DNA from: Candidatus Saccharimonadota bacterium
GTDB taxonomy: Bacteria > Patescibacteriota > Saccharimonadia > Saccharimonadales > Saccharimonadaceae
Direction of reading: 5' to 3'
DNA length: 49,420 nucleotides
Assembly: GCA_017516075.1 (NCBI GenBank)
Contig: JAFWDS010000011.1
Coordinates: 1-49,420 of the forward strand
Position 1 is the stretch's first letter. Each line of letters begins with the position of its first letter. A model generated the notes under the pieces. That model ran no database searches. It was given only the letters and a program-made list of their open reading frames with translations, and was not told the DNA's origin. The position numbers and the translations under genes were made by a program. Of the stretch, positions 8,652 through 49,420 are shown piece after piece.

Positions 8652-10337
8652 ATGAAACAATATACGACACTAACCATCGGCATACCAATAACAGCTATGA
8701 TTCTTTCAGGTGTAGTTTTGGCATCTAGTTATGTCTCCGCTGAGACTGACGTAGTAGATGAGATTAATATCACTGTCCCAGAGTCCTGTTCTCTTTCTGG
8801 CACTGGTATGAATAGCCATAATGCTAATATCGCCAATGGTACTTATCGAGCGGATATTGGCACTACTACTCTCCACGCATTCTGTAATGATTCTGAAGGC
8901 TTCGCTATCTATGCCGCAGGATATACTGGAGATACTATTGGTGAGACTAATAGCAATAAACTCGTCGGAGCTTCTACTAATACTACTATAGAAACCGGAC
9001 TAGCTACATCGGCTGGTAATCCTGATGTATCTAATTGGGCGATGAAGCTAGCTATCACGCAAGATTCTGGTGATACAACTGGTACTAATGCTTATACGAT
9101 AGATTCTGCACCAAATACTTCTGGTGGTTCTGATGCGAGCTTTGGTGAGTATCATGTAGTCCCCCATGAATACACCAAAGTCGCTCATAAGAACTCAGCT
9201 ACCGATATGACCGCAAACACTGGCGGAGTTAAACTCACTACTACTTATGCAGCTTACATTTCTAAAACTCAACCAGCTGATACTTATACCGGCCAAGTCA
9301 TCTACGCTCTCGTTCATCCATCCGATGCTCCTGCTCCACAAGTCAGTTCCTGTCAGACCAAAGTCCCTGGTGTCACCTACATGCAAGAATTCGCCACCAT
9401 GACTGCTGCCGAAAAAGCTACGATTCTAGGAAACATGACCGAAGACGCCCAGTATAGCCTCAAGGATAGTCGTGATAACAAATCCTATTGTGTAGCCAAG
9501 CTACGAGATGGCAACATCTGGATGACCCAAAACCTAGATCATGATATTGTTAATACACAAAATTATTACACCAATCAAAACACCGACATCGGCTACAATA
9601 CCTCTACTAGTGAATACGACACTGCCACCTGGACAGCTCCTAGTGCCACTCTTACAGATGCTAACAAAAATAACTGGGTAGGCTCCACTACTATTCCTAT
9701 GTCCTATGACCCAGGAGACCTTTATTGGAACGGCACTAAATCGGACAATAGCGATTGGAGAACATATAATAGAAGCTGTACTTGGAATAGCACTACACAA
9801 AAATACGAAAACTGCGACGAATCACTAAATCCAATCGCTACATACACAGATACCACTGGTGAATCCCAGTATCATCTAGGTAACTATTACAACTGGACCG
9901 CCGCTGTAGCCATGAGTGACAGTAGCTCTCATACTACGTCTGGCGAGTTAATAGAACAATCCATCTGCCCAGCTGGCTGGACTCTACCACGCGTAGGTAC
10001 TGGTAACGATACATTCTACGGCCTCTGGAATGAATATGGTTTCACTAGTAGCAGCTACATAGACACTAATAGTAACAACCAACATGACGAAGGTGAAGAT
10101 GCCCTCTGGACTACCCCGCTTTACTCCGCTGCTGGTGGGTACTTCAACGGCGTACTGCGTGGCGTTGGCCGCAACGGCGACTTCTGGTTGCCAGTTGTAG
10201 CACTTTTCGACGAAGTCAGGGGCGCGTACTTCGAGACAGGTGGCTACGTCCTCCCTTCTAGTAATGTCGATAGACGAGGCGGTAGCACCATCCGTTGCGT
10301 CGCCCGCCCAGTCGCCTCCTCCGTCTCCGGCCTCTAA
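8652..10337 (+). CDS. FISUMP-domain surface protein A with hypervariable C-terminus
   Basis: This 561-residue protein is predicted to be secreted. It has an N-terminal signal or anchor segment (about 1-30), a Thr/Ser-rich beta domain shared by all paralogs here (VDEINITVPESCS, about 32-225), then a Fibrobacter-succinogenes major-paralog (FISUMP) domain from about 265 (DSRDNKSYCVAKLRDGNIWM, later SICPAGWTLPRVG near 435). The last 70 residues are variable between paralogs, except for fixed W, G and RCVARP positions. The -10 TATGAT (8621-8626) and GAGGA before the ATG support the start. The fold is C-type-lectin or FGE-like by family knowledge. Adhesion or host recognition is inferred. Confidence 0.85.
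   Translation: MKQYTTLTIGIPITAMILSGVVLASSYVSAETDVVDEINITVPESCSLSGTGMNSHNANIANGTYRADIGTTTLHAFCNDSEGFAIYAAGYTGDTIGETNSNKLVGASTNTTIETGLATSAGNPDVSNWAMKLAITQDSGDTTGTNAYTIDSAPNTSGGSDASFGEYHVVPHEYTKVAHKNSATDMTANTGGVKLTTTYAAYISKTQPADTYTGQVIYALVHPSDAPAPQVSSCQTKVPGVTYMQEFATMTAAEKATILGNMTEDAQYSLKDSRDNKSYCVAKLRDGNIWMTQNLDHDIVNTQNYYTNQNTDIGYNTSTSEYDTATWTAPSATLTDANKNNWVGSTTIPMSYDPGDLYWNGTKSDNSDWRTYNRSCTWNSTTQKYENCDESLNPIATYTDTTGESQYHLGNYYNWTAAVAMSDSSSHTTSGELIEQSICPAGWTLPRVGTGNDTFYGLWNEYGFTSSSYIDTNSNNQHDEGEDALWTTPLYSAAGGYFNGVLRGVGRNGDFWLPVVALFDEVRGAYFETGGYVLPSSNVDRRGGSTIRCVARPVASSVSGL
10146..10298 (+). other. Hypervariable 3' segment of FISUMP gene A (DGR-type variable region candidate)
   Basis: Codons aligned with genes C and D differ mainly where a template AAC or AAT could have been randomised (for example AAC/GTC/GGC, CGC/GGC/TTC, AAC/TAC/GGC). 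Codons between them (GTA, GTT, TTCTGG, CCAGTTGTA) are fixed. The flank before it is nearly identical between A and C. Confidence 0.6.
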
Positions 10338-10490
10338 TCCTCCACCCCCAACTTTATAATCCTTGCCAAACTTTATAAACTCCCTACTCGGCGACAAACA
10401 TCCGACACTTGTATTTCCGTACTATATTTTTCCATCTACCATGTCACAAGCTAACTTCAGCGAACATTTGGCGAATACGCGAGATTAGAG

Positions 10491-10496
10491 TATAAT
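10491..10496 (+). promoter_or_regulatory. Fic gene -10 box
   Basis: TATAAT lies 6 nt before the ATG at 10503. A message from this promoter would be leaderless. No Shine-Dalgarno is present. Confidence 0.5.
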
Positions 10497-10502
10497 AAAA
10501 TC

Positions 10503-11165
10503 ATGATACTAAAGGATAAATATAATTTGACTCGTGAAGAAAACGTTTTTGTTGCGAAAAAATACCTGAAAGATTCGGTGTATAGGAGTGCATTTCTAGA
10601 AGGTATGGCAGTAACCTTTCCACAGACAGAAGCAATCCTGGAGAATGCCACAGTGAATAACGTTTCAGCGAAGGATGTAGCGAAGGTAATTGAACTACGG
10701 GACGCATGGGAATACTTATTAGCGAATTTGGATGTGTCTCTAGACTTGAAATATCTCGAAGACCTACATGAAATCATCGCCAGAGAAGATGTGCCATGGG
10801 ACAGGCTTGGCAAACTACGCACCGACAACGTTCGGATTTCCGGGACAAACTACATACCAAAAGTTCCAAATCCAGAAACCGCAAGTTTGAAGATAAATGA
10901 GATTCTTGAAAGCGACAACAGCGATACGGAAAAAGCGATTACCATGCTGCTATATCTAATGCGCGCTCAACTCTTCTTGGACGGCAATAAAAGGATTGCG
11001 ACTTTTGCTTGCAACAAAATTTTGGTCAGTACTGGCCACGGAATTTTTTCGCTGCCACCGGAGCTAAAAGAAGAATTCGCAGAAAAACTGATTCATTTCT
11101 ATGAGACTGACGACATGGATGAGTTAAAAACATTCGTGTACGACAATTGCTTGAGCGGACTATAA
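10503..11165 (+). CDS. Fic-domain protein with inhibitory helix; catalytic His replaced by Gln
   Basis: This is a 220-residue Fic/Doc family protein. Fic enzymes transfer AMP or other phosphate-containing groups to proteins using HxFx(D/E)GN(G/K)R. Here the motif reads Q156-L-F158-L-D160-G-N162-K-R164, so the catalytic His is Gln while the Asp, Asn and Arg stay. An N-terminal S29-AFL-E33-G34 matches the inhibitory motif (S/T)xxxE(G/N). Both together suggest a regulated scaffold, an enzyme with altered chemistry, or a recently inactivated copy. No toxin or antitoxin partner is adjacent. It sits between FISUMP genes A and B with its own promoter. Confidence 0.85.
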   Translation: MILKDKYNLTREENVFVAKKYLKDSVYRSAFLEGMAVTFPQTEAILENATVNNVSAKDVAKVIELRDAWEYLLANLDVSLDLKYLEDLHEIIAREDVPWDRLGKLRTDNVRISGTNYIPKVPNPETASLKINEILESDNSDTEKAITMLLYLMRAQLFLDGNKRIATFACNKILVSTGHGIFSLPPELKEEFAEKLIHFYETDDMDELKTFVYDNCLSGL

Positions 11166-11258
11166 TTGTCGAAAAACAGGCTCGTAGCTTTTTGGGTGTA
11201 GATTATTTCATAATGGTTATGCTATAATAGTATTTGTAAATAAGGAAAGGTCTAGACA

Positions 11259-13529
11259 ATGAAGACAAATAGCACACTCATAATCATCGGCATACCAATA
11301 GCAGCTATGATTCTTTCAGGTGCAGTTTTGGCATCTAGTTATGTCTCCGCTGAGACTGACGTAGTAGATGAGATTAATATCACTGTCCCAGTGTCCTGTT
11401 CTATTTCTGGTACTGGTATGGATTCTCATAATGCTAATATAGCTAATGGTATATATACTGCAGATATTGGTACTACTACACTACATGCTTTTTGTAATGA
11501 CAATGAAGGCTTCGCTATCTATGCTGCAGGATATACAGGAAATGAAGTGGGAGGAACGAATAGTAATAAGTTAGTCGGAACAACGGCTTCTGGTAATGCA
11601 ACTATAGAATCAGGCCTAGCTACGTCTGCTGGTAATCCTGATATATCTAATTGGGCGATGAAACTAGCTATCACTCAAGATTCTGGTGATACTACTGGCA
11701 CTAATGCTTATACGATAGATTCTGCACCAAATACTTCTGGTGGTTCTGATGCGAGCTTTGGTGAGTACCATGTAGTCCCCAATGAATACACCAAAGTCGC
11801 TCACAAAAACTCTGGTACCGACATGACTGAAACTACTGGTGGAGTTAAGCTTACTACTACTTATGCCGCTTACATTTCTAAGACTCAAGCTGCCGATACG
11901 TATTCTGGGCAAGTCATCTATACTCTCGTCCATCCATCTTCTGCTGTAGCTGGCAAGCTAAATGTAAACTTTGATGGTAATGGCTTAACCTTCCCGAATG
12001 GTAAATCCACTAACCTGGTAGCATACGAAGCGACCGAAACCGAAACTACTGGTACTGTAACCAAGAAGTCTTATACTGGTTCATATAACGAAGAAGGTGG
12101 CTTTGCTGATTATGGAGTGCCAGCTGGCAATAAAGTTGTAACTATTGATGGAGCTGAAAGTATCCATATCGCAGTAACCTATGGTGCTCCACAAAACAAC
12201 GGTGGTCCACCGAGCGATTTATATATCTTTGCCGGAAATCATCCTGACTATACGAATTCTAACAGTGTGGATGGGTTAGCGAGTTGCGGTTCAACTAATT
12301 CAGTCAATGGTGTATTCTCTTCTATGGGTAGTAGTGGCTCACAGGTAACAATGGAATGTGATATCGCTAGTGATTCGGTAACGTTCTATGATTATAGTGC
12401 AAATACTAATAATACTGCCTCCATGGGTTACTATGCCGTAATCACCGGCCAAGGCACCATCACATCCTACAATAAAACCGCTACTTCCGGCACCTACCAA
12501 ACCCCATCCACTAGAGCAGGCCAAGACGTCTTCCTCGGTTGGAGTACTAATCCAAATGCTAATGCTGAAGCCGAAGATCCACTATACGCTAACGAAGCAG
12601 ACTTTATCGCTAATGCACCATACCTTAACATTGACGGTAATGTCACTATGTATGCAGTATGGGGTAAGACATTCAATGCGGCCTATGCTGATGCAAATAA
12701 ATCACAACTATCTGGTCATTATAAAATGCAAGACGGTACAGAAGAACTATGTAAAGAAATCTACGTCGGTGCTACTGAAACTCTCATAGACTCACGTGAC
12801 AATACTACTTACATGGCAGGAAGACTAAAAGACGGTAAGTGCTGGATGCTAGATAATCTCGCACTTGATCCAACAAATTCCACTACTGCAGCCAACATGA
12901 ACGCATCCAACACTAACGCTACCCAAGAAGCCATCACCAACCTTCTAAACGGTGGTAGTAGTACTGCTGGATGGAGTAGTGTAGCCGTAGAGAACAAAAT
13001 TACTGGATGGAATACTACAAGCCCAAACAATGCCTATGAATATCCATATGTTAATAATCAAAGCAAAAATACTCTCGTCACGTCCTACGGCCCAGCCTCT
13101 ACTAACGGACAAGCTAAAGTAGGTATCTACTACAACTTCTGCGCTGCATCTGCTAGTACATATTGTTATGCAGAAGGTAGTGGCGTAGATGTACCAGATA
13201 CCATCATTGACGCTCCTCAAGACATCTGTCCAGCCAACTGGCGAATGCCTACTGGTGGCAATACTGGTGAATACTACTCACTAGCTCAGAAGTACGGTAG
13301 CGATGCATCTAACACTAACAGCCTCCAATATAACTTGTCTACGCCTCTTTCGGGCAACTACTACGGTAGCTCGGCGTACTATCAGGGTAGCCTCGGCTAC
13401 TGGTGGTCGTCTACTTACGGCAGTAGCAACAACATGTACGACCTGTACGTCTATCCGACTAACGTGAGCCCGTGCCACAGCTACTATCGCAACTATGGAC
13501 GATCTATGCGATGCTTGATGGCTGATTAG
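11259..13529 (+). CDS. FISUMP-domain surface protein B with InlB-type repeat
   Basis: This is a 756-residue secreted protein. The signal segment (1-30) and first beta domain (to about 225) are almost identical to gene A. An insert follows that A and C lack: about 230-395 (KLNVNFDGNGLTFPNGKS, IHIAVTYGAP) and a Listeria-Bacteroides/InlB-type repeat at about 395-470 (VFLGWSTNPN, NVTMYAVWG). The FISUMP domain starts near 505 (LIDSRDNTTYMAGRLKDGKCW) and ends with an aromatic-rich, NAC-codon-rich tail (GYWWSSTYGSS, RSMRCLMAD). Promoter TATAAT and AAGGAAAGG precede the ATG. Probably a multi-domain adhesin; function inferred. Confidence 0.83.
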   Translation: MKTNSTLIIIGIPIAAMILSGAVLASSYVSAETDVVDEINITVPVSCSISGTGMDSHNANIANGIYTADIGTTTLHAFCNDNEGFAIYAAGYTGNEVGGTNSNKLVGTTASGNATIESGLATSAGNPDISNWAMKLAITQDSGDTTGTNAYTIDSAPNTSGGSDASFGEYHVVPNEYTKVAHKNSGTDMTETTGGVKLTTTYAAYISKTQAADTYSGQVIYTLVHPSSAVAGKLNVNFDGNGLTFPNGKSTNLVAYEATETETTGTVTKKSYTGSYNEEGGFADYGVPAGNKVVTIDGAESIHIAVTYGAPQNNGGPPSDLYIFAGNHPDYTNSNSVDGLASCGSTNSVNGVFSSMGSSGSQVTMECDIASDSVTFYDYSANTNNTASMGYYAVITGQGTITSYNKTATSGTYQTPSTRAGQDVFLGWSTNPNANAEAEDPLYANEADFIANAPYLNIDGNVTMYAVWGKTFNAAYADANKSQLSGHYKMQDGTEELCKEIYVGATETLIDSRDNTTYMAGRLKDGKCWMLDNLALDPTNSTTAANMNASNTNATQEAITNLLNGGSSTAGWSSVAVENKITGWNTTSPNNAYEYPYVNNQSKNTLVTSYGPASTNGQAKVGIYYNFCAASASTYCYAEGSGVDVPDTIIDAPQDICPANWRMPTGGNTGEYYSLAQKYGSDASNTNSLQYNLSTPLSGNYYGSSAYYQGSLGYWWSSTYGSSNNMYDLYVYPTNVSPCHSYYRNYGRSMRCLMAD
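13356..13514 (+). other. Variable-region-like 3' segment of FISUMP gene B
   Basis: It is dense in AAC, TAC, AGC and GGC codons with fixed W, G and R-x-x-R-C positions. This is the composition expected of an adenine-targeted variable region. It aligns only loosely with A, C and D, so it would belong to a different template or be an older divergence. Confidence 0.4.
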
Positions 13530-13684
13530 AGTAGTTTGGTTGCTATGTGAGTCTGCGTTTGCTGTTCCCGACGCCACCTCCTTGGATTTGTGTTGGTGTT
13601 TCCAGTGGTGCTTGGTTGGTGTTGTGTGATGTAATGGGGTGTGGTAATATATAAGCATAAGTTAGTTAAAAGGATTATTTAATT

Positions 13685-15400
13685 ATGGTCATACGGGATC
13701 ATTATTATAGAACAGTAATGATAAGTATAGGTGCGATGTTTGGAGTCATCACTATAGTTGGTGGGATATTAGCTAGTAATCGGGTATTAGCTGATGATAA
13801 TACTTCCGTCGTAGATGAAATAAATATCACTGTCCCAGAATCCTGTTCTATTTCTGGTACTGGTATGGATTCTCATAATGCTAATATAGCTAATGGTATA
13901 TATACTGCAGATATTGGTACTACTACTCTCCACGCATTCTGTAATGATTCTGAAGGCTTTGCTATCTATGCGGCTGGATATACTGGAGATGAGATAGGAG
14001 GGACGAATAGTAATAAGCTAGTAGGAACAACAGCTAGTGGTAATGCCGTAATAGAATCAGGTCTAGCTACATCTGCTGGTAATCCTGACGTATCTAACTG
14101 GGCAATGAAACTAGCTATCACGCAAGATAGTGGTGACATAACTGGCACTAATGCTTATACGATAGATTCTGCACCAAATACTTCTGGTGGTTCTGATGCA
14201 ACCTTTGGTGAGTATCATGTAGTCCCCAATGAATATACCAAAGTCGCTCACAAAACTGCCGCTACTGATATGACCGAATCTACTGGTGGAGTTAAGCTTA
14301 CTACTACCTACGCTGCCTATATTTCCAAAACCCAACCAGCTGATACGTATTCTGGACAGGTCATCTACACCCTAGTTCATCCATCCGATGCTCCGGCTCC
14401 ACAAGTCAGTTCCTGTCAGACCAAAGTCCCAGGTGTCACCTACATGCAAGAATTCGCCACCATGACCACACAAGAAAAAGCTGCAGTTTTAGGGAATATG
14501 ACTGAAGACGCCCAATATGGCATTAAGGACAGCCGCGATAATAAATCCTATTGTGTAGCCAAACTAAAAGACGGCAACATCTGGATGACCCAAAACCTAG
14601 ATCACGATATCGTCACTACAACAAATTACTATACTAATCAAAACACTGACATTGGCTATAATACTTTCACCAGTCAATACGACACTGCTACCTGGACAGC
14701 TCCCAGTGCCACCCTTACAGACACCAACAAAAGCAACTGGGTAGGCTCATATACAATTCCTATGTCTTATGACCCAGGCGACCTTTACTGGAGCGCTACC
14801 GAATCAGACTATAGTGATTGGAACACCTACATGAGTAGCTGCACTTGGAATAGCACTACGCAAAAATACGAAAACTGCGACGAATCACTAAATCCAATTG
14901 CTACATATACAGATACCACTGGTGAATCCCAATATCATCTAGGTAACTATTACAACTGGACTGCTGCTGTAGCTATGAGCGATAGTAGCTCCTATACTAC
15001 GTCAAACGAACTCATAGAACAATCCATCTGCCCAGCTGGCTGGACTCTGCCACGCGTAGGTACTGGTAATGATTCCTTCTATAGCCTCTGGAATGAATAT
15101 GGTTTCACTAGTAGCAGCTACACAGACACTAATAGTAACAACCAATATGACGAAGATGAAGATGCCCTCTGGACTACCCCGCTTTACTCCGCTGCTGGTG
15201 GGTACTTCGTCGGCGTACTAGGCTACGTTAGCGGCTACGGCATCTTCTGGTCGCCAGTTGTAGATAGTAGTGACTTCGCCAGGGGCGCGTACTTCAACGT
15301 GGTTGGCGACGTCTTTCCTTCCTTTTGGGTCAATCGCGACTACGGCAATTCCGTCCGCTGCGTTGCGCGTCCCGTAGCGTCATCGGTTAGTGGTCTGTAG
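13685..15400 (+). CDS. FISUMP-domain surface protein C with hypervariable C-terminus
   Basis: This 571-residue protein has a signal sequence unrelated to that of A and B (ISIGAMFGVITIVGGILAS), followed by the same VDEINITVPESCS domain and the same FISUMP domain. Much of the middle is nearly identical to A at nucleotide level. The last 70 residues diverge sharply, then the conserved ARPVASSVSGL tail returns. Mosaicism (new signal, shared core, variable tail) suggests recombination among paralogs. AAAAGGA precedes the ATG at about 10 nt spacing. The 3' end overlaps the convergent dus by 14 bp. Confidence 0.84.
   Translation: MVIRDHYYRTVMISIGAMFGVITIVGGILASNRVLADDNTSVVDEINITVPESCSISGTGMDSHNANIANGIYTADIGTTTLHAFCNDSEGFAIYAAGYTGDEIGGTNSNKLVGTTASGNAVIESGLATSAGNPDVSNWAMKLAITQDSGDITGTNAYTIDSAPNTSGGSDATFGEYHVVPNEYTKVAHKTAATDMTESTGGVKLTTTYAAYISKTQPADTYSGQVIYTLVHPSDAPAPQVSSCQTKVPGVTYMQEFATMTTQEKAAVLGNMTEDAQYGIKDSRDNKSYCVAKLKDGNIWMTQNLDHDIVTTTNYYTNQNTDIGYNTFTSQYDTATWTAPSATLTDTNKSNWVGSYTIPMSYDPGDLYWSATESDYSDWNTYMSSCTWNSTTQKYENCDESLNPIATYTDTTGESQYHLGNYYNWTAAVAMSDSSSYTTSNELIEQSICPAGWTLPRVGTGNDSFYSLWNEYGFTSSSYTDTNSNNQYDEDEDALWTTPLYSAAGGYFVGVLGYVSGYGIFWSPVVDSSDFARGAYFNVVGDVFPSFWVNRDYGNSVRCVARPVASSVSGL
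15209..15364 (+). other. Hypervariable 3' segment of FISUMP gene C (DGR-type variable region candidate)
   Basis: Relative to A and D, substitutions cluster in the first two bases of NNC/NNT codons. The preceding stretch around 15170-15208 is essentially identical between A and C. The downstream CGCTGCGTT is shared with D and could be the site where cDNA integration starts. Confidence 0.6.
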
Positions 15401-18878: not shown

Positions 18879-18917
18879 GGTTAAGCTTTTCTGGTGTCGT
18901 AGAGCACTAACGAGGAC

Positions 18918-18946
18918 TTGATTTTTTTGCATAAGTATGATATAAT
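18918..18946 (+). promoter_or_regulatory. Sigma-70-type promoter of the 151-aa gene
   Basis: TTGATT, 17-bp spacer, TATAAT. It gives a leader of about 40 nt with GGGGAGAG before the ATG at 18995. Confidence 0.65.
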
Positions 18947-18994
18947 TAGGTTGTAGTGTTAATCTATGTTCTTTAAGATTGGGGAGAGTAAAAA

Positions 18995-19450
18995 ATGAAG
19001 GGGAGAGCAACTAATAATGAATTGGGACCTAGACTTGTAGCTTGGGAAGTTTGTTTTTTAAGAATCGATGGTTTACAGAATCGCAGACGCGCAGTGCAGG
19101 AGATTTGTGATTTCCTAAATGATACTCTTAGAAAAGAGATGTTTCTGCCGGGCTATGCTTTCTTGAAGGGCATAGTTTATGGTAATTTTAATTTTATGGA
19201 TGGTAGGGAGATTTTTACGTCCTACATCAATAAGATTGAAAAAATCCGCCTCGATGGTCCTTATTCTCAGGATATCGATTGGGATTGTTTGTGCGTAGAA
19301 ACAGAAAGGGGGGTGAAATATTATATTTCGTTAGAAGAACAGCACGTCTATAATTACTTATTATTCTCTGATTGGCTGCTTAGAAACACGCTTTGTTCTA
19401 GGCCGGGAGCATATTTGCCTTCTGCCTTCAGGGAAACGATTTTGTTGTGA
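18995..19450 (+). CDS. Hypothetical protein (151 aa)
   Basis: I do not recognise this protein. It is soluble and mixed in character, with an Arg-rich first third (LQNRRRAVQEICDFLNDTL), aromatic-rich middle (GNFNFMDGREIFTSYI) and a C-terminal stretch QHVYNYLLFSDWLL that could be a helix. There is no signal peptide or known motif. A promoter with good spacing, a Shine-Dalgarno and a strong terminator directly after the stop support a real single-gene unit between prfB and the ribosomal operon. Confidence 0.55.
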   Translation: MKGRATNNELGPRLVAWEVCFLRIDGLQNRRRAVQEICDFLNDTLRKEMFLPGYAFLKGIVYGNFNFMDGREIFTSYINKIEKIRLDGPYSQDIDWDCLCVETERGVKYYISLEEQHVYNYLLFSDWLLRNTLCSRPGAYLPSAFRETILL

Positions 19451-19472
19451 ATTAACGGATTTACTCTCTTTT

Positions 19473-19500
19473 AACCCTGGTCTTTATGGCCAGGGTTTTT
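19473..19500 (+). terminator. Rho-independent terminator before the ribosomal operon
   Basis: An AACCCTGG / CCAGGGTT stem is followed by a T run. Confidence 0.8.
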
Positions 19501-19516
19501 AAATGAAAAATAGGGG

Positions 19517-19545
19517 TTGGCAAGAGAAAAAAATTGTGATATAAT
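19517..19545 (+). promoter_or_regulatory. Ribosomal protein operon promoter
   Basis: TTGGCA, a 17-bp spacer and an extended TGTGATATAAT make one of the best promoters in the window. The predicted start near 19552 gives a 200-nt leader before rplC. Confidence 0.75.
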
Positions 19546-19551
19546 TGCTGT

Positions 19552-19751
19552 GTTACCTAGACATAAGGAGAGGTCCGCCATAGCTCACGAGTGGAAACCG
19601 CCCTAAAAGTCTAGTTTTAATAGTGCGTTTTGTTTGGTGTACAGAGACAAAACTCACTAACAAAAAGTACCTGTTATAGGCAGGAATTGGTAGTTTTGCC
19701 CGATGTACAGGGGTAAAACTCTAAGAAATAATATTAAACGAAAGGAATAGG
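19552..19751 (+). ncRNA. Structured leader of the ribosomal protein operon
   Basis: The 200-nt untranslated leader opens with a CTAGAC (19557-19562) / GTCTAG (19609-19614) stem around a GC-rich loop. It then carries two related hairpins at 19623-19657 and 19692-19720. Both have a GTTTTG-type stem and expose TGTACAG in the loop. This is the place of the S10-operon leader, which binds L4 in gamma-proteobacteria. No similarity to that leader was seen. AAAGGA precedes the rplC ATG. Confidence 0.6.
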
Positions 19752-20969
19752 ATGCAAGTCATTCTCGGCACCAAAATTGGTATGACCCAGATTATCGGCG
19801 AAACAGGCGAAGTTACTCCTGTAACTATTCTGCAAGCCGGTCCGTGCATAGTGACTCAGATAAAGACTATCGAAACTGATGGTTATAATGCTGTGCAAGT
19901 GGGCTATGGTCAGGGTAAGAATCTGAGCAAGTCGGTTTCCGGCCACGTCAAAAAGGCTGGAGAAGAAGTCGCTCCTAAAATCTTGAAGGAATTTCGCGTT
20001 GAGGAAATCCCTGAAGGAATGAAGGTCGGTGACAAAATCACCATTGAAAATTTCAAACTTGGTGATAAGGTGAGTGTCACTGGCACGAGCAAAGGTAAAG
20101 GTTATGCAGGTACAGTAAAACGTTGGAATTTCAACGAATCTCGCAACACGCATGGTTTTAAGGGTAATATTCGTCGAGTTGGTTCGATTGGTTCAATGTA
20201 TCCACAAAAAGTTTGGAAAGGCAAGAAGATGCCCGGTCGAATGGGTCACGACAAAGTTACTGTCAAGAACCTTGTGGTTGCATATCTCGATGCAGAAAAG
20301 AATTTGCTTGGTCTAAAAGGCGCAGTGCCTGGTCCAAACAAAGGTATAATCAGCGTGGAGGGAAGGAGTAATATGGCGTTAAATAAAGATATTTTTGGTT
20401 TAACCGTAGAAAACCATGAGCTCGTGAAACTCGCTTATGATACTTACCTAGCAAATTCTCGTAGTTCGCATGCTAAAACTTTGAAGCGCGGCGAAGTACG
20501 TGGTGGTGGTAAAAAGCCTTGGAGACAAAAAGGTACTGGTAGAGCTCGTTTTGGCTCAACTCGTAACCCGATTTGGCGTCATGGTGGTGTGGCTTTTGGT
20601 CGCACTGGTAATGAGAACTTTACCAAGAAATTGGCAAAAAGTTCAAAATTACTCGCTGTACGTCAAGCTCTCAGTATGAGAAATGCTGACAAAGCTGTGA
20701 TTGTACTCGACAAAGACGTCAAACTTACTGGCAAGACCAAGGATGCGGTCAAGGTTCTCAAGGATTTGAAGCTTGAGGATAAAAACGTTTTGGCTGTAGT
20801 GAAGGAAAAGACGCCAGAAATTTTGCGATCGACTAATAATTTACCAAATGTAAAATTGGTTCGCGCAAGTTATCTTAATGTCTTTGATATTATGAATGCG
20901 GATGCAATTGTCTTTAGTGAAGCGGCTTTGAAAGAAACAGAAAAGTGGCTACTAGGAGAGGAGAAGTAA
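19752..20969 (+). CDS. rplC-rplD: Ribosomal protein L3 and L4 in one continuous reading frame
   Basis: Residues 1-207 are L3 (MQVILGTKIGMTQ, GMKVGDKI, NTHGFKGNIRRVGS, MPGRMGHDKVTVKNL, ending AVPGPNKG). Residues 208-405 are L4 (RGEVRGGGKKPWRQKGTGRAR, RHGGVAFG). No stop separates them. GGAAGGAG stands just before an in-frame ATG at 20373 (Met208), so L4 is probably also made on its own. Started there, L4 lacks about 15 residues of its usual N-terminal strand, which the L3 tail might supply. Fusion protein, recent stop loss, or a sequencing error are the options. First gene of the operon; rpsJ, its usual neighbour, is absent. Confidence 0.9.
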   Translation: MQVILGTKIGMTQIIGETGEVTPVTILQAGPCIVTQIKTIETDGYNAVQVGYGQGKNLSKSVSGHVKKAGEEVAPKILKEFRVEEIPEGMKVGDKITIENFKLGDKVSVTGTSKGKGYAGTVKRWNFNESRNTHGFKGNIRRVGSIGSMYPQKVWKGKKMPGRMGHDKVTVKNLVVAYLDAEKNLLGLKGAVPGPNKGIISVEGRSNMALNKDIFGLTVENHELVKLAYDTYLANSRSSHAKTLKRGEVRGGGKKPWRQKGTGRARFGSTRNPIWRHGGVAFGRTGNENFTKKLAKSSKLLAVRQALSMRNADKAVIVLDKDVKLTGKTKDAVKVLKDLKLEDKNVLAVVKEKTPEILRSTNNLPNVKLVRASYLNVFDIMNADAIVFSEAALKETEKWLLGEEK

Positions 20970-26895: not shown

Positions 26896-28605
26896 TTATA
26901 GGCCGGAGACCGATGACGCCGTGGGGCGTGCAACGCAGCGGACAGAATTGCCGCCGTAGCGATTGCCATAATTGGAAGGGCTGACGCTGCCATCCACGTG
27001 GAAGCTCGCGAGCGCGGCGCCTTTACCATTGATAAGTACAACCGGCGACCAGAAGTCGCCGCCGAAGCCAACGCCGCCTAGTACACTGCCGAAGTACCCA
27101 CCAGCAGCGGAGTAAAGCGGAGTAGTCCAGAGGGCATCTTCACCTTCGTCATGTTGGTTGTTACTATTAGTGTCTGTGTAGCTTCTACTAGTGAAACCAT
27201 ATTCATTCCAGAGGCTATAGAAGGAATCATCACCGGTACCTACGCGTGGCAGAGTCCAGCCAGCTGGGCAGATGGATTGTTCTATCAGTTCGTTTGATGT
27301 AGTATAGGAGCTACTATCGCTCATAGCTACAGCAGCAGTCCAGTTGTAATAGTTACCTAGATGATACTGGGATTCACCAGTGGTATCTATGTAAGTGTTG
27401 ATGGGATTTAGCAATTCGTCACAGTTTTCGTATTTGTTTGTAGTGTTATTCAAAGTGCAGCTATCGTAGTAGGCGTCCCAATCGCTATAGTCTGATTTGG
27501 TAGCGTTCCAGTAAAGGTCACCTGGGTCATAAGACATAGGAATTGTATATGAGCCTACCCAGTTGCTTTTGTTAGCATCTGTAAGAGTGGCACTGGGTGC
27601 CGTCCAGGTAGCAGTGTCGTATTCTCCAGTAGAAGTATTATAGCCGATGTCGGTGTTTTGGTTAGTATAGTAATTTGTCGTAGTGACGATATCATGATCT
27701 AGGTTTTGGGTCATCCAGATGTTACCGTCTTTTAGTTTGGCTACACAATAGGATTTATTATCACGACTATCCTTGAGGCTATACTGGGCGTCTTCGGTCA
27801 TGTTTCCTAAAACTGCAGCTTTTTCCTCGGTAGTCATAGTGGCAAATTCTTGCATGTAGGTGACACCAGGAACTTTGGTCTGACAGGAACTGACTTGTGG
27901 AGCAGGAGCGTCGGATGGATGAACTAGAGTGTAGATGACCTGGCCAGAATAGGTATCGGCTGGTTGGGTTTTGGAAATGTATGCTGCATAAGTAGTAGTG
28001 AGTTTAACTCCGCCAGTGTTTGCGGTCATATCAGTAGCGGAGTTTTTGTGAGCGACTTTAGTGTATTCGTTTGGTACTACATGATACTGCGAAAATGAAG
28101 CGCTTGTAGCGGATTGTTCTGCTTCACTTGGAAGAGCTACATTAGGAGCAGAATCAATAGTAAAAGCATTGGTACCAGTTGTATCGCCAGAATCTTGAGT
28201 GATGGCTAGTTTCATAGCCCAGTTAGAAACATCTGGATTGCCAGCCGATGTAGCTAGTCCGGTTTCTATAGTAGTATTAGTAGAAGCTCCGACGAGTTTA
28301 TTGCTATTAGTCTCACCAATAGTATCGCCAGTATATCCTGCCGCGTAAATAGCAAAGCCTTCAGAATCATTACAAAATGCATGTAACGTAGTAGTGCCGA
28401 TATCAGCTTGGTAGGTGCCATTAGTGATATTGGCATTATGGCTATTCATGCCAGTACCAGATAGAGTACAAGAAATGGGGACAGTGATATTGATTTCATC
28501 TACTACGTCATTCTCGGCAGAGACATAGGTAGAAGCAAGAATAGCTCCTGTGATGATAGTGGTTGTTGTTAGGATGTTAATAGTGAGTGTCGTGTTTCTT
28601 CTCAT
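26896..28605 (-). CDS. FISUMP-domain surface protein D with hypervariable C-terminus
   Basis: This 569-residue protein is the only FISUMP copy here on the minus strand. It has a signal segment (LTINILTTTTIITGAILAST), the VDEINITVPISCT domain, a paralog-specific insert near residue 170 (LPSEAEQSATSASFSQ) and the FISUMP domain. The variable tail is VLGGVGFGGDFWSPVVLING and onwards. It ends ARPTASSVSGL. TATAAT (28612-28617) lies 6 nt before the ATG, so the message is probably leaderless, unlike A-C. With gene E, in the opposite direction, it flanks the polysaccharide locus. Confidence 0.85.
   Translation of the reverse strand: MRRNTTLTINILTTTTIITGAILASTYVSAENDVVDEINITVPISCTLSGTGMNSHNANITNGTYQADIGTTTLHAFCNDSEGFAIYAAGYTGDTIGETNSNKLVGASTNTTIETGLATSAGNPDVSNWAMKLAITQDSGDTTGTNAFTIDSAPNVALPSEAEQSATSASFSQYHVVPNEYTKVAHKNSATDMTANTGGVKLTTTYAAYISKTQPADTYSGQVIYTLVHPSDAPAPQVSSCQTKVPGVTYMQEFATMTTEEKAAVLGNMTEDAQYSLKDSRDNKSYCVAKLKDGNIWMTQNLDHDIVTTTNYYTNQNTDIGYNTSTGEYDTATWTAPSATLTDANKSNWVGSYTIPMSYDPGDLYWNATKSDYSDWDAYYDSCTLNNTTNKYENCDELLNPINTYIDTTGESQYHLGNYYNWTAAVAMSDSSSYTTSNELIEQSICPAGWTLPRVGTGDDSFYSLWNEYGFTSRSYTDTNSNNQHDEGEDALWTTPLYSAAGGYFGSVLGGVGFGGDFWSPVVLINGKGAALASFHVDGSVSPSNYGNRYGGNSVRCVARPTASSVSGL
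26935..27090 (-). other. Hypervariable 3' segment of FISUMP gene D (DGR-type variable region candidate)
   Basis: Relative to A and C, changes concentrate at NNC/NNT codons. GGCGACTTCTGG and CCTTCC blocks are retained, and there is one extra codon in the middle. The upstream flank is shared with A and C. Confidence 0.6.
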
Positions 28606-48506: not shown

Positions 48507-49420
48507 ATGAAAAAAGAAAACTTAGTAATAACAGCATTAATGATGACTACCGCTATGGTTGGAGCCGCACTTAGCTCTAGTATGGTCTCTGCTGATGACG
48601 TAGTGGATGAAATTAATATCACTGTTCCAGAGTCCTGTTCTCTTTCTGGTACTGGTATGGATTCTCATAATGCTAATATAGCCAATGGTACTTACCAAGC
48701 GGATATTGGCACTACTACTCTCCACGCATTCTGTAATGATTCTGAAGGGTTTGCCATCTATGCCGCAGGATATACTGGCGATACTATTGGCGAAACTAAT
48801 AGCAATAAACTCGTCGGAGCTTCTACTAATACTACTATAGAAACCGGACTAGCTACATCGGCTGGTAATCCCGATGTATCCAACTGGGCGATGAAGCTAG
48901 CTATCACGCAAGATAGTGGTGATATAACTGGTACTAATGCTTATACGATAGATTCTGCACCAAATACTTCTGGTGGTTCTGATGCGAGCTTTAGTGGGTA
49001 CCATGTAGTCCCAAATGAATATACCAAAGTCGCCCACAAGAATTCTGGCACCGACATGACGGCTAGTACTGGCGGCGTCAAACTCACCACCACCTATGCC
49101 GCCTACATCTCCAAAACCCAACCAGCTGATACTTATTCCGGTCAGGTCATCTACACTCTAGTTCATCCATCCGATGCTCCGGCTCCACAAGTCAGTTCCT
49201 GTCAAACCAAAGTCCCAGGTGTCACCTACATGCAAGAATTCGCCACTATGACTGCTACCGAAAAAGCTACGGTTCTTAGCAACATGACCGAAGATGCCCA
49301 ATATGGCATTAAGGACAGCCGTGATGACAAATCCTATTGTGTAGCCAAACTAAAAGATGGCAACATCTGGATGACCCAAAACCTAGATCATGATATCGTC
49401 ACTACGACAAATTACTATAC
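48507..49420 (+). CDS. FISUMP-domain surface protein E (cut by window edge)
   Basis: The frame is open from ATG 48507 (or 48492) to the end of the window, giving more than 300 residues. It has a signal segment unlike the other copies (NLVITALMMTTAMVGAALSS), then the VDEINITVPESCS domain and the start of the FISUMP domain (DSRDDKSYCVAKLKDGNIWM). Long stretches are nearly identical to A and C at nucleotide level. The variable tail lies outside the window. Same direction as A-C and opposite to D. Confidence 0.85.
   Translation, partial: MKKENLVITALMMTTAMVGAALSSSMVSADDVVDEINITVPESCSLSGTGMDSHNANIANGTYQADIGTTTLHAFCNDSEGFAIYAAGYTGDTIGETNSNKLVGASTNTTIETGLATSAGNPDVSNWAMKLAITQDSGDITGTNAYTIDSAPNTSGGSDASFSGYHVVPNEYTKVAHKNSGTDMTASTGGVKLTTTYAAYISKTQPADTYSGQVIYTLVHPSDAPAPQVSSCQTKVPGVTYMQEFATMTATEKATVLSNMTEDAQYGIKDSRDDKSYCVAKLKDGNIWMTQNLDHDIVTTTNYY

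What the first reader, a model, noticed from the sequence alone, without database searches (positions are those of the whole stretch)
10138..15400. Diversity-generating-retroelement-like hypervariable tails in FISUMP surface proteins
Genes A, C and D are near-identical for long stretches before the 3' end, then diverge over about 155 nt, then converge again. Aligned codons differ mostly as NNC or NNT while codons between are fixed: AAC/GTC/GGC, GGC/TAC/GGC, CGC/GGC/TTC, AAC/TAC/GGC, GAC/ATC/GAC, GTT/GAT/GGT, GAC/AGC/TAC. This fits adenine mutagenesis of a template rich in AAC/AAT, as in DGRs, whose targets usually have C-type-lectin folds; CPR genomes are known to carry many DGRs. A few third-base and C-to-T differences do not fit and may be ordinary drift. 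No reverse transcriptase, Avd or A-rich template copy is in the window, so the machinery would act in trans.
Basis: partly seen in the sequence, partly recalled or inferred. Interest (0 to 1): 0.88.

Follow-up and report, generated by a model that had tools for sequence, protein, structure and literature searches.

The report
Hypervariable lectin tails lacking their mutator
A small gut Saccharibacteria genome carries many lectin-like surface genes whose tails were scrambled at template adenines by a known reverse-transcriptase system found in related species, but that system's own genes are missing from this assembly.

Summary
In D (13685-15400), F (26896-28605, minus) and a third copy, E, elsewhere in the genome, the last ~55 codons differ mainly at codon positions 1 and 2 (NNC/NNT). 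The rest of these genes differs mainly at position 3. Using an independent template repeat (TR) from a sibling species, D/E/F vary at 38 of 49 template-A positions against 8 of 69 others (p=2e-13). The gene body shows no such bias (p=0.94). A second set of at least 10 genes elsewhere in the genome shows the same signature. Sibling species carry complete diversity-generating retroelements (DGRs): IGxxSQ reverse transcriptase (RT), accessory gene, TR, and a variable repeat (VR) inside homologous genes. The domain folds like TvpA and Mtd, two known DGR targets. C matches only over its first ~240 residues. The A/D 3' ends converge in protein, not DNA. No RT, accessory gene or TR is in this genome by profile or DNA search, while positive-control genomes score. 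VR drift at non-adenine sites suggests a relic, but the 37-contig assembly breaks repeatedly inside these genes, so a hidden core is not excluded.

The parts
8652..10337 (+). Gene A: secreted FISUMP-like protein, 561 aa
   Evidence: 84% identical to D over the full length; no Pfam or NCBIfam hit
10140..10301 (+). Variable tail of A; drifted or from another template lineage
   Evidence: Codon alignment; 14-18 third-position differences to D/E/F
11259..13529 (+). Gene C: shares only the N-terminal ~240 residues; different C-terminal FISUMP-like domain
13345..13512 (+). Tail of C, rich in C-ending codons, a possible VR with no close copy for a test
   Evidence: 48% C at third positions against 23% in the body
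13685..15400 (+). Gene D: secreted FISUMP-like protein, 571 aa; C-terminal domain predicted with C-type-lectin-like fold
   Evidence: TIGR02145 35.3 bits; model pLDDT 93.5; TvpA Z 7.0, Mtd Z 5.3
15203..15364 (+). Variable repeat of D
   Evidence: Adenine-column test with sibling TR, body control
26896..28605 (-). Gene F: third copy in the window, on the minus strand
   Evidence: 83% identical to D
26911..27117 (-). Variable repeat region of F
   Evidence: Match to inferred template; test
48528..49420 (+). Truncated copy cut by the contig end before its tail
   Evidence: 88% identical to D residues 15-316
18879..19751 (+). Intergenic stretch between the release-factor gene and rplC/rplD; the orthologous gap in sibling G009 holds accessory gene, RT, TR and a FISUMP-like target, here only a 151-aa ORF
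   Evidence: unoccupied in many siblings too, so not in itself evidence of loss

Best explanation
The tails are variable repeats (VRs) of a diversity-generating retroelement. An error-prone DGR reverse transcriptase copied a template repeat RNA, put random bases at template adenines, and the cDNA replaced the tail of lectin-like, secreted surface proteins, so that AAC/AAT codons became NNC/NNT. At least two template families served at least 13 genes. Shown here: the adenine-specific pattern, complete DGRs with homologous targets in sibling species, and the lectin-like fold. Inferred: that the same mechanism wrote the tails in this genome, and that variation alters ligand or partner-cell binding. 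In this genome the core (RT, accessory gene, template) is missing from the assembly. The tails have drifted at non-adenine sites, so I think it most likely (about 0.5) that they are a relic repertoire no longer being rewritten; next most likely (about 0.4) that the core exists but was not assembled or binned.
For: Codon-position reversal between body and tail. With the TR of sibling L125, D/E/F vary at 38/49 A positions against 8/69 non-A at codon positions 1+2, p=2e-13, per base A 0.78, C 0.05, G 0.13, T 0.16. The same comparison in the gene body gives A 0.11 vs non-A 0.15, p=0.94. Among amino-acid-variable codons the third base varies in 64/95 in the body but 7/30 in the tail. A second own-genome tail family gives 41/52 vs 12/62, p=1e-10, with a sibling TR. 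Sibling DGRs: L125 TR/VR has 36 of 40 mismatches at template A; L138 31/33, L139 31/33; RT motif IGNLTSQ; RVT_1 over cut-off in 85 of 147 genomes of the genus. Fold: TvpA and Mtd, both DGR targets, among the best matches. Drift: 11-13 of 125 non-A positions differ between D, E and F against 0-4 non-A mismatches per roughly 95-230 bp in sibling TR/VR pairs.
Against: No RT, no accessory gene and no TR in the own genome, so the mechanism is inferred from siblings. A few non-A changes (GTA/GCA, GTT/ATT, TCG/CCG) do not fit. A's tail has many third-base changes. For D/E/F the tail third-base divergence (0.12-0.14) is not far below that of the adjacent body (0.17-0.19), so a recent shared template is not shown for them. 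Two RT-less kin, G003 and G018, have fresh-looking VRs with no RT or TR either, which hints that cores may be systematically missed.
Confidence: 0.88

Rival explanations
1. The DGR core is present and active but lies in an assembly gap or on an unbinned replicon, and rewrites these tails in trans.
For: Several contig ends lie inside FISUMP-like genes (for example C3 right, C28, C29 and C15 left, C31 right), and completeness is 95.7%. G003 and G018 have fresh VRs (0/19, 0/21, 1/21 and 0/24 third-base changes at variable codons) yet no RT or TR.
Against: About a third of the high-quality genomes of the genus lack an RT (61 of 95 have one), far more than incompleteness predicts. Two sites where siblings have the core next to an orthologous gene are assembled here without it (C34 beside an exonuclease-like gene, C31 beside glyA). 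Own VRs have drifted at non-A sites. IMG/VR scans for the RT, the tails and the gene found nothing.
Confidence: 0.4
2. Ordinary paralogue divergence: diversifying selection on the exposed face of a lectin-like domain, with no retroelement.
For: The variable columns fall in the C-terminal part of a lectin-like, probably binding, domain. No RT is in the genome. A's tail shows many third-base changes.
Against: Selection does not explain fixed third bases at variable codons (tail 7/30 vs body 64/95), nor the match to sibling template adenines, nor complete DGRs acting on the same genes in siblings.
Confidence: 0.06
3. Gene conversion or cassette shuffling between the many paralogous tails maintains diversity without a reverse transcriptase.
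For: Many tails with shared scaffolds. Bodies as diverged as 36% in amino acids carry tails with few third-base differences (L028-L029: 50/76 body vs 4/22 tail), so tails have been copied between genes.
Against: Copying alone spreads existing codons and does not create new NNC/NNT variety at template adenines. The A-specific signal needs a mutagenic step. It may act in addition to, or after, the DGR; mosaic structure was not tested.
Confidence: 0.08

Closest known systems
Complete DGRs in sibling Saccharibacteria (L125, L138, L139, L108, L052 and others)
   Same: Homologous FISUMP-like target with VR at the C-terminus; VR scaffold matches, e.g. NNGNFWSSVANN in the TR against xxGxFWSPVVxx in D
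   Different: Siblings keep RT, accessory gene and TR next to the target; the own genome has only targets
Treponema denticola TvpA DGR targets (2y3c)
   Same: Lectin-like fold with C-terminal variable region; best structural match, Z 7.0 over 167 residues
   Different: 11% identity in the aligned part; T. denticola has a DGR RT (from memory)
Bordetella phage BPP-1 Mtd DGR
   Same: C-type-lectin-fold target, adenine mutagenesis; Mtd matched at Z 5.3
   Different: Phage tail protein beside RT; here dispersed multi-copy cellular surface genes and no core
Fib_succ_major / DUF1566 DGR targets in human microbiomes (PMC4159848)
   Same: Fib_succ_major domains reported as DGR targets
   Different: Own proteins fall below the curated cut-offs of PF09603 and TIGR02145
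Thiohalocapsa PB-PSB1 DGR loci (PMC10907252)
   Same: Incomplete DGR loci and remote targets, some best explained by diversification in trans
   Different: There other loci in the same genome supply RT and TR; here none was found

Membership tests
Diversity-generating retroelement (complete cassette) | DGR-type reverse transcriptase in the genome | tested here: not met
   RVT_1 none at E<=10; sibling DGR RT none; 20-sequence RT profile none in G000 while G009 and G035 score 558-619 bits. Assembly is 95.7% complete
Diversity-generating retroelement (complete cassette) | Template repeat matching the VR with A at variable sites | tested here: not met
   Inferred-TR searches for both tail families return only VR-bearing genes
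Diversity-generating retroelement (complete cassette) | Accessory gene next to RT | tested here: not met
   Profile of the sibling accessory gene: none in G000; controls ring
DGR target gene with variable repeat | Substitutions concentrated at template adenines | tested here: met
   Sibling TR: 38/49 vs 8/69, p=2e-13; second family p=1e-10; body control p=0.94
DGR target gene with variable repeat | Non-adenine positions preserved against the template | tested here: inconclusive
   Third bases mostly fixed (7/30 variable), but 11-13 of 125 non-A positions differ between D/E/F, more than in sibling TR/VR pairs; no own TR to compare with
DGR target gene with variable repeat | C-type-lectin fold with VR at the C-terminus | tested here: met
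   Model pLDDT 93.5; TvpA Z 7.0, Lcl C-terminal domain Z 6.5, Mtd Z 5.3 and many CTLDs. Z below 8 and no Foldseek E below 1, so similarity of fold only
DGR target gene with variable repeat | IMH element or hairpin at the VR 3' end | not tested
   Not examined
FISUMP domain (TIGR02145 / PF09603) | Score above the curated cut-off | tested here: not met
   D 35.3 of 41.65 bits, C 20.8 of 41.65 and 23.2 of 33.9, A none: FISUMP-like, not a formal member

The most novel reading that the evidence does not exclude
A multi-gene DGR target repertoire that outlives its own mutator: several Saccharibacteria species keep dozens of lectin-like VR genes after losing RT, template and accessory gene, and go on sorting a frozen set of binding tails by duplication and recombination; or they use an RT on an unbinned replicon.
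Probability: 0.35. Interest if true: 0.7.

Novelty: new variant of a known kind. Interest (0 to 1): 0.52.

Why it matters
Ultra-small Saccharibacteria depend on other bacteria, and how they recognise partners is poorly known. A large family of secreted lectin-like proteins whose binding tails were randomised by a retroelement is a direct candidate. A genus in which some species have the complete machine and others only its products lets one ask how DGR repertoires are gained, spread, frozen and lost. It also warns that absence of an RT in a MAG does not mean absence of DGR-made variation.

Tried and rejected
(1) Weak RVT_1 hits in 370-390 aa ORFs of other genomes (e.g. G003:C2:281959): the ORF at that place reads as tRNA-guanine transglycosylase-like and carries no DGR RT motif; rejected as an RT. 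(2) C19:615-805, a tail match with no listed gene, tested as a possible template: it is another VR with few AAY codons. (3) RT or template on a phage: IMG/VR scans with the RT protein, two tail patterns and gene D gave nothing. (4) The prf-rplC gap as an 'empty DGR site' proving loss: rejected as proof, because the release-factor gene is followed by rplC with no FISUMP or RT in many siblings, and by a FISUMP-like gene in only a few. (5) Foldseek alone gave no match below E=1; the C-type-lectin assignment rests on VIA-align. (6) PDB sequence search: nothing. (7) An association between many FISUMP-like genes and lack of RT (p=0.03 in high-quality genomes) is biased because genes were counted by similarity to D; not used as evidence. 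(8) Literature search for DGR with FISUMP: none; Fib_succ_major appears as a DGR target in PMC4159848.

Full report
What was checked. The window is contig C3 of a 924-kb, 37-contig genome (95.7% complete). Database relatives of gene D are Candidatus Saccharibacteria MAGs, many from ruminant gut. A, D and the minus-strand gene F lie in the window, and copy E is on contig C20. A, E and F are 83-85% identical to D. C shares only the first ~240 residues. A fifth copy is cut by the right end of the contig.

The observation. Body and tail behave in opposite ways. For D-E the counts at codon positions 1, 2, 3 are 45, 37, 140 in the body (474 codons) and 20, 14, 7 in the tail (60 codons); D-F and E-F are alike, with p about 1e-7 or below. 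A is less clean, with 14-18 third-position differences in the tail.

Is it adenine-directed? The own genome has no template, so I used templates from other species. In L125 (57% identical homologue) the gene, an accessory gene and an RT with the DGR motif IGNLTSQ lie together. The TR and VR differ at 40 positions, 36 of them A in the TR. The TR aligns codon by codon with the D, E and F tails apart from one extra codon in F. At codon positions 1+2, D/E/F vary at 38 of 49 columns where that TR has A and at 8 of 69 others (p=2e-13). The control over the rest of the gene shows no effect of A (0.11 vs 0.15, p=0.94), and amino-acid-variable codons keep their third base in the tail (7/30 variable) but not in the body (64/95). 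This last point separates a mutagenic mechanism from diversifying selection, which has no reason to spare third bases. A second family of tails elsewhere in the genome, tested in 5-10 genes, gives the same result with the TR of L154 (41/52 vs 12/62, p=1e-10). That alignment is one codon out of register near its end, which weakens rather than creates the signal.

Siblings. RVT_1 is over its cut-off in 85 of 147 genomes of the genus. In 29 distinct DGR loci with a called template the TR lies convergent to the RT in 25, in tandem in 3 and divergent in 1 (three duplicate loci removed from the printed tally). A conserved ~290-aa gene precedes the RT. It has no significant Pfam or PHROG hit; a weak MutS_I hit and an Avd-like end by eye are leads only.

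The missing core. RVT_1 at E up to 10, the L125 RT, a 20-sequence RT profile and an accessory-gene profile find nothing in the own genome, while control genomes G009 and G035 score 224-619 bits. Inferred templates of both tail families hit only VR-bearing genes. Two places where siblings have the core beside an orthologous gene are assembled here with target and neighbour but no core: C34 (exonuclease-like gene) and C31 (glyA). The third, the gap between the release-factor gene and rplC in this window, is free of FISUMP and RT genes in many siblings and so says little. Against a firm claim of loss: several contig ends lie inside these genes, and G003 and G018 have fresh VRs with no core found.

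Relic or hidden? D, E and F differ from one another at 11-13 of 125 non-A positions, where sibling TR/VR pairs show 0-4 non-A mismatches. That suggests these tails have not been rewritten lately. I put a relic at about 0.5 and a hidden core at about 0.4. Neither is shown.

What it does. The proteins begin with a signal-peptide-like stretch (from the sequence) and end in a domain modelled with pLDDT 93.5. Its best structural matches are TvpA (Z 7.0), the Lcl C-terminal domain (6.5) and others including Mtd (5.3) and many C-type lectins. The Z values are middling, but the list is coherent, and two of the rows are proteins known as DGR targets. Binding to partner-cell or host-surface ligands is inferred.

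Known and new. Fib_succ_major proteins were reported as DGR targets (PMC4159848), CPR bacteria are rich in DGRs (PMC8144416), and incomplete or remote DGR loci are known in Thiohalocapsa (PMC10907252). An RT-inverted cassette is described as more than 20 times rarer than the canonical one (PMC6642488), so the convergent layout in this genus may be notable. New here is a multi-gene target repertoire in Saccharibacteria whose core is absent from the assembly, with complete DGRs in sister species as the yardstick.

Noticed in passing
L125:7734-9122, L138:5953-7357, L139:12039-13479, L108:2846-4253 and others: In this genus the template repeat lies convergent to the RT in 25 of 29 distinct DGR loci, an arrangement described as rare elsewhere (PMC6642488).
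   Followed up: partly
L125:6860-7744, L108:1907-2842, L107:4679-5557: A fast-evolving ~290-aa gene sits directly upstream of nearly every sibling DGR RT; no significant family match, weak MutS domain I resemblance.
   Followed up: partly
G003 (L202, L203, L209) and G018 (L216, L217, L219): Two high-quality genomes have tails with almost no third-base change (0/19, 0/21, 0/24 at variable codons) yet no RT, accessory gene or TR.
   Followed up: partly
18879-19751: The gap between the release-factor gene and rplC holds a FISUMP-like gene or whole DGR in G009, G019, G010 and G076 but not in many other siblings: cores or targets seem to move between sites.
   Followed up: partly
19752-20969: Ribosomal proteins L3 and L4 form one 405-aa ORF here; in seven siblings the two are adjacent but in different frames. 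Real fusion or assembly error is undecided.
   Followed up: partly
10503-11165: A Fic/DOC-domain gene (Pfam PF02661) sits between surface genes A and C.
   Followed up: no
48528-49420 and ends of C28, C29, C15, C31: Several contigs of this genome end inside FISUMP-like genes, so the family itself breaks the assembly.
   Followed up: partly
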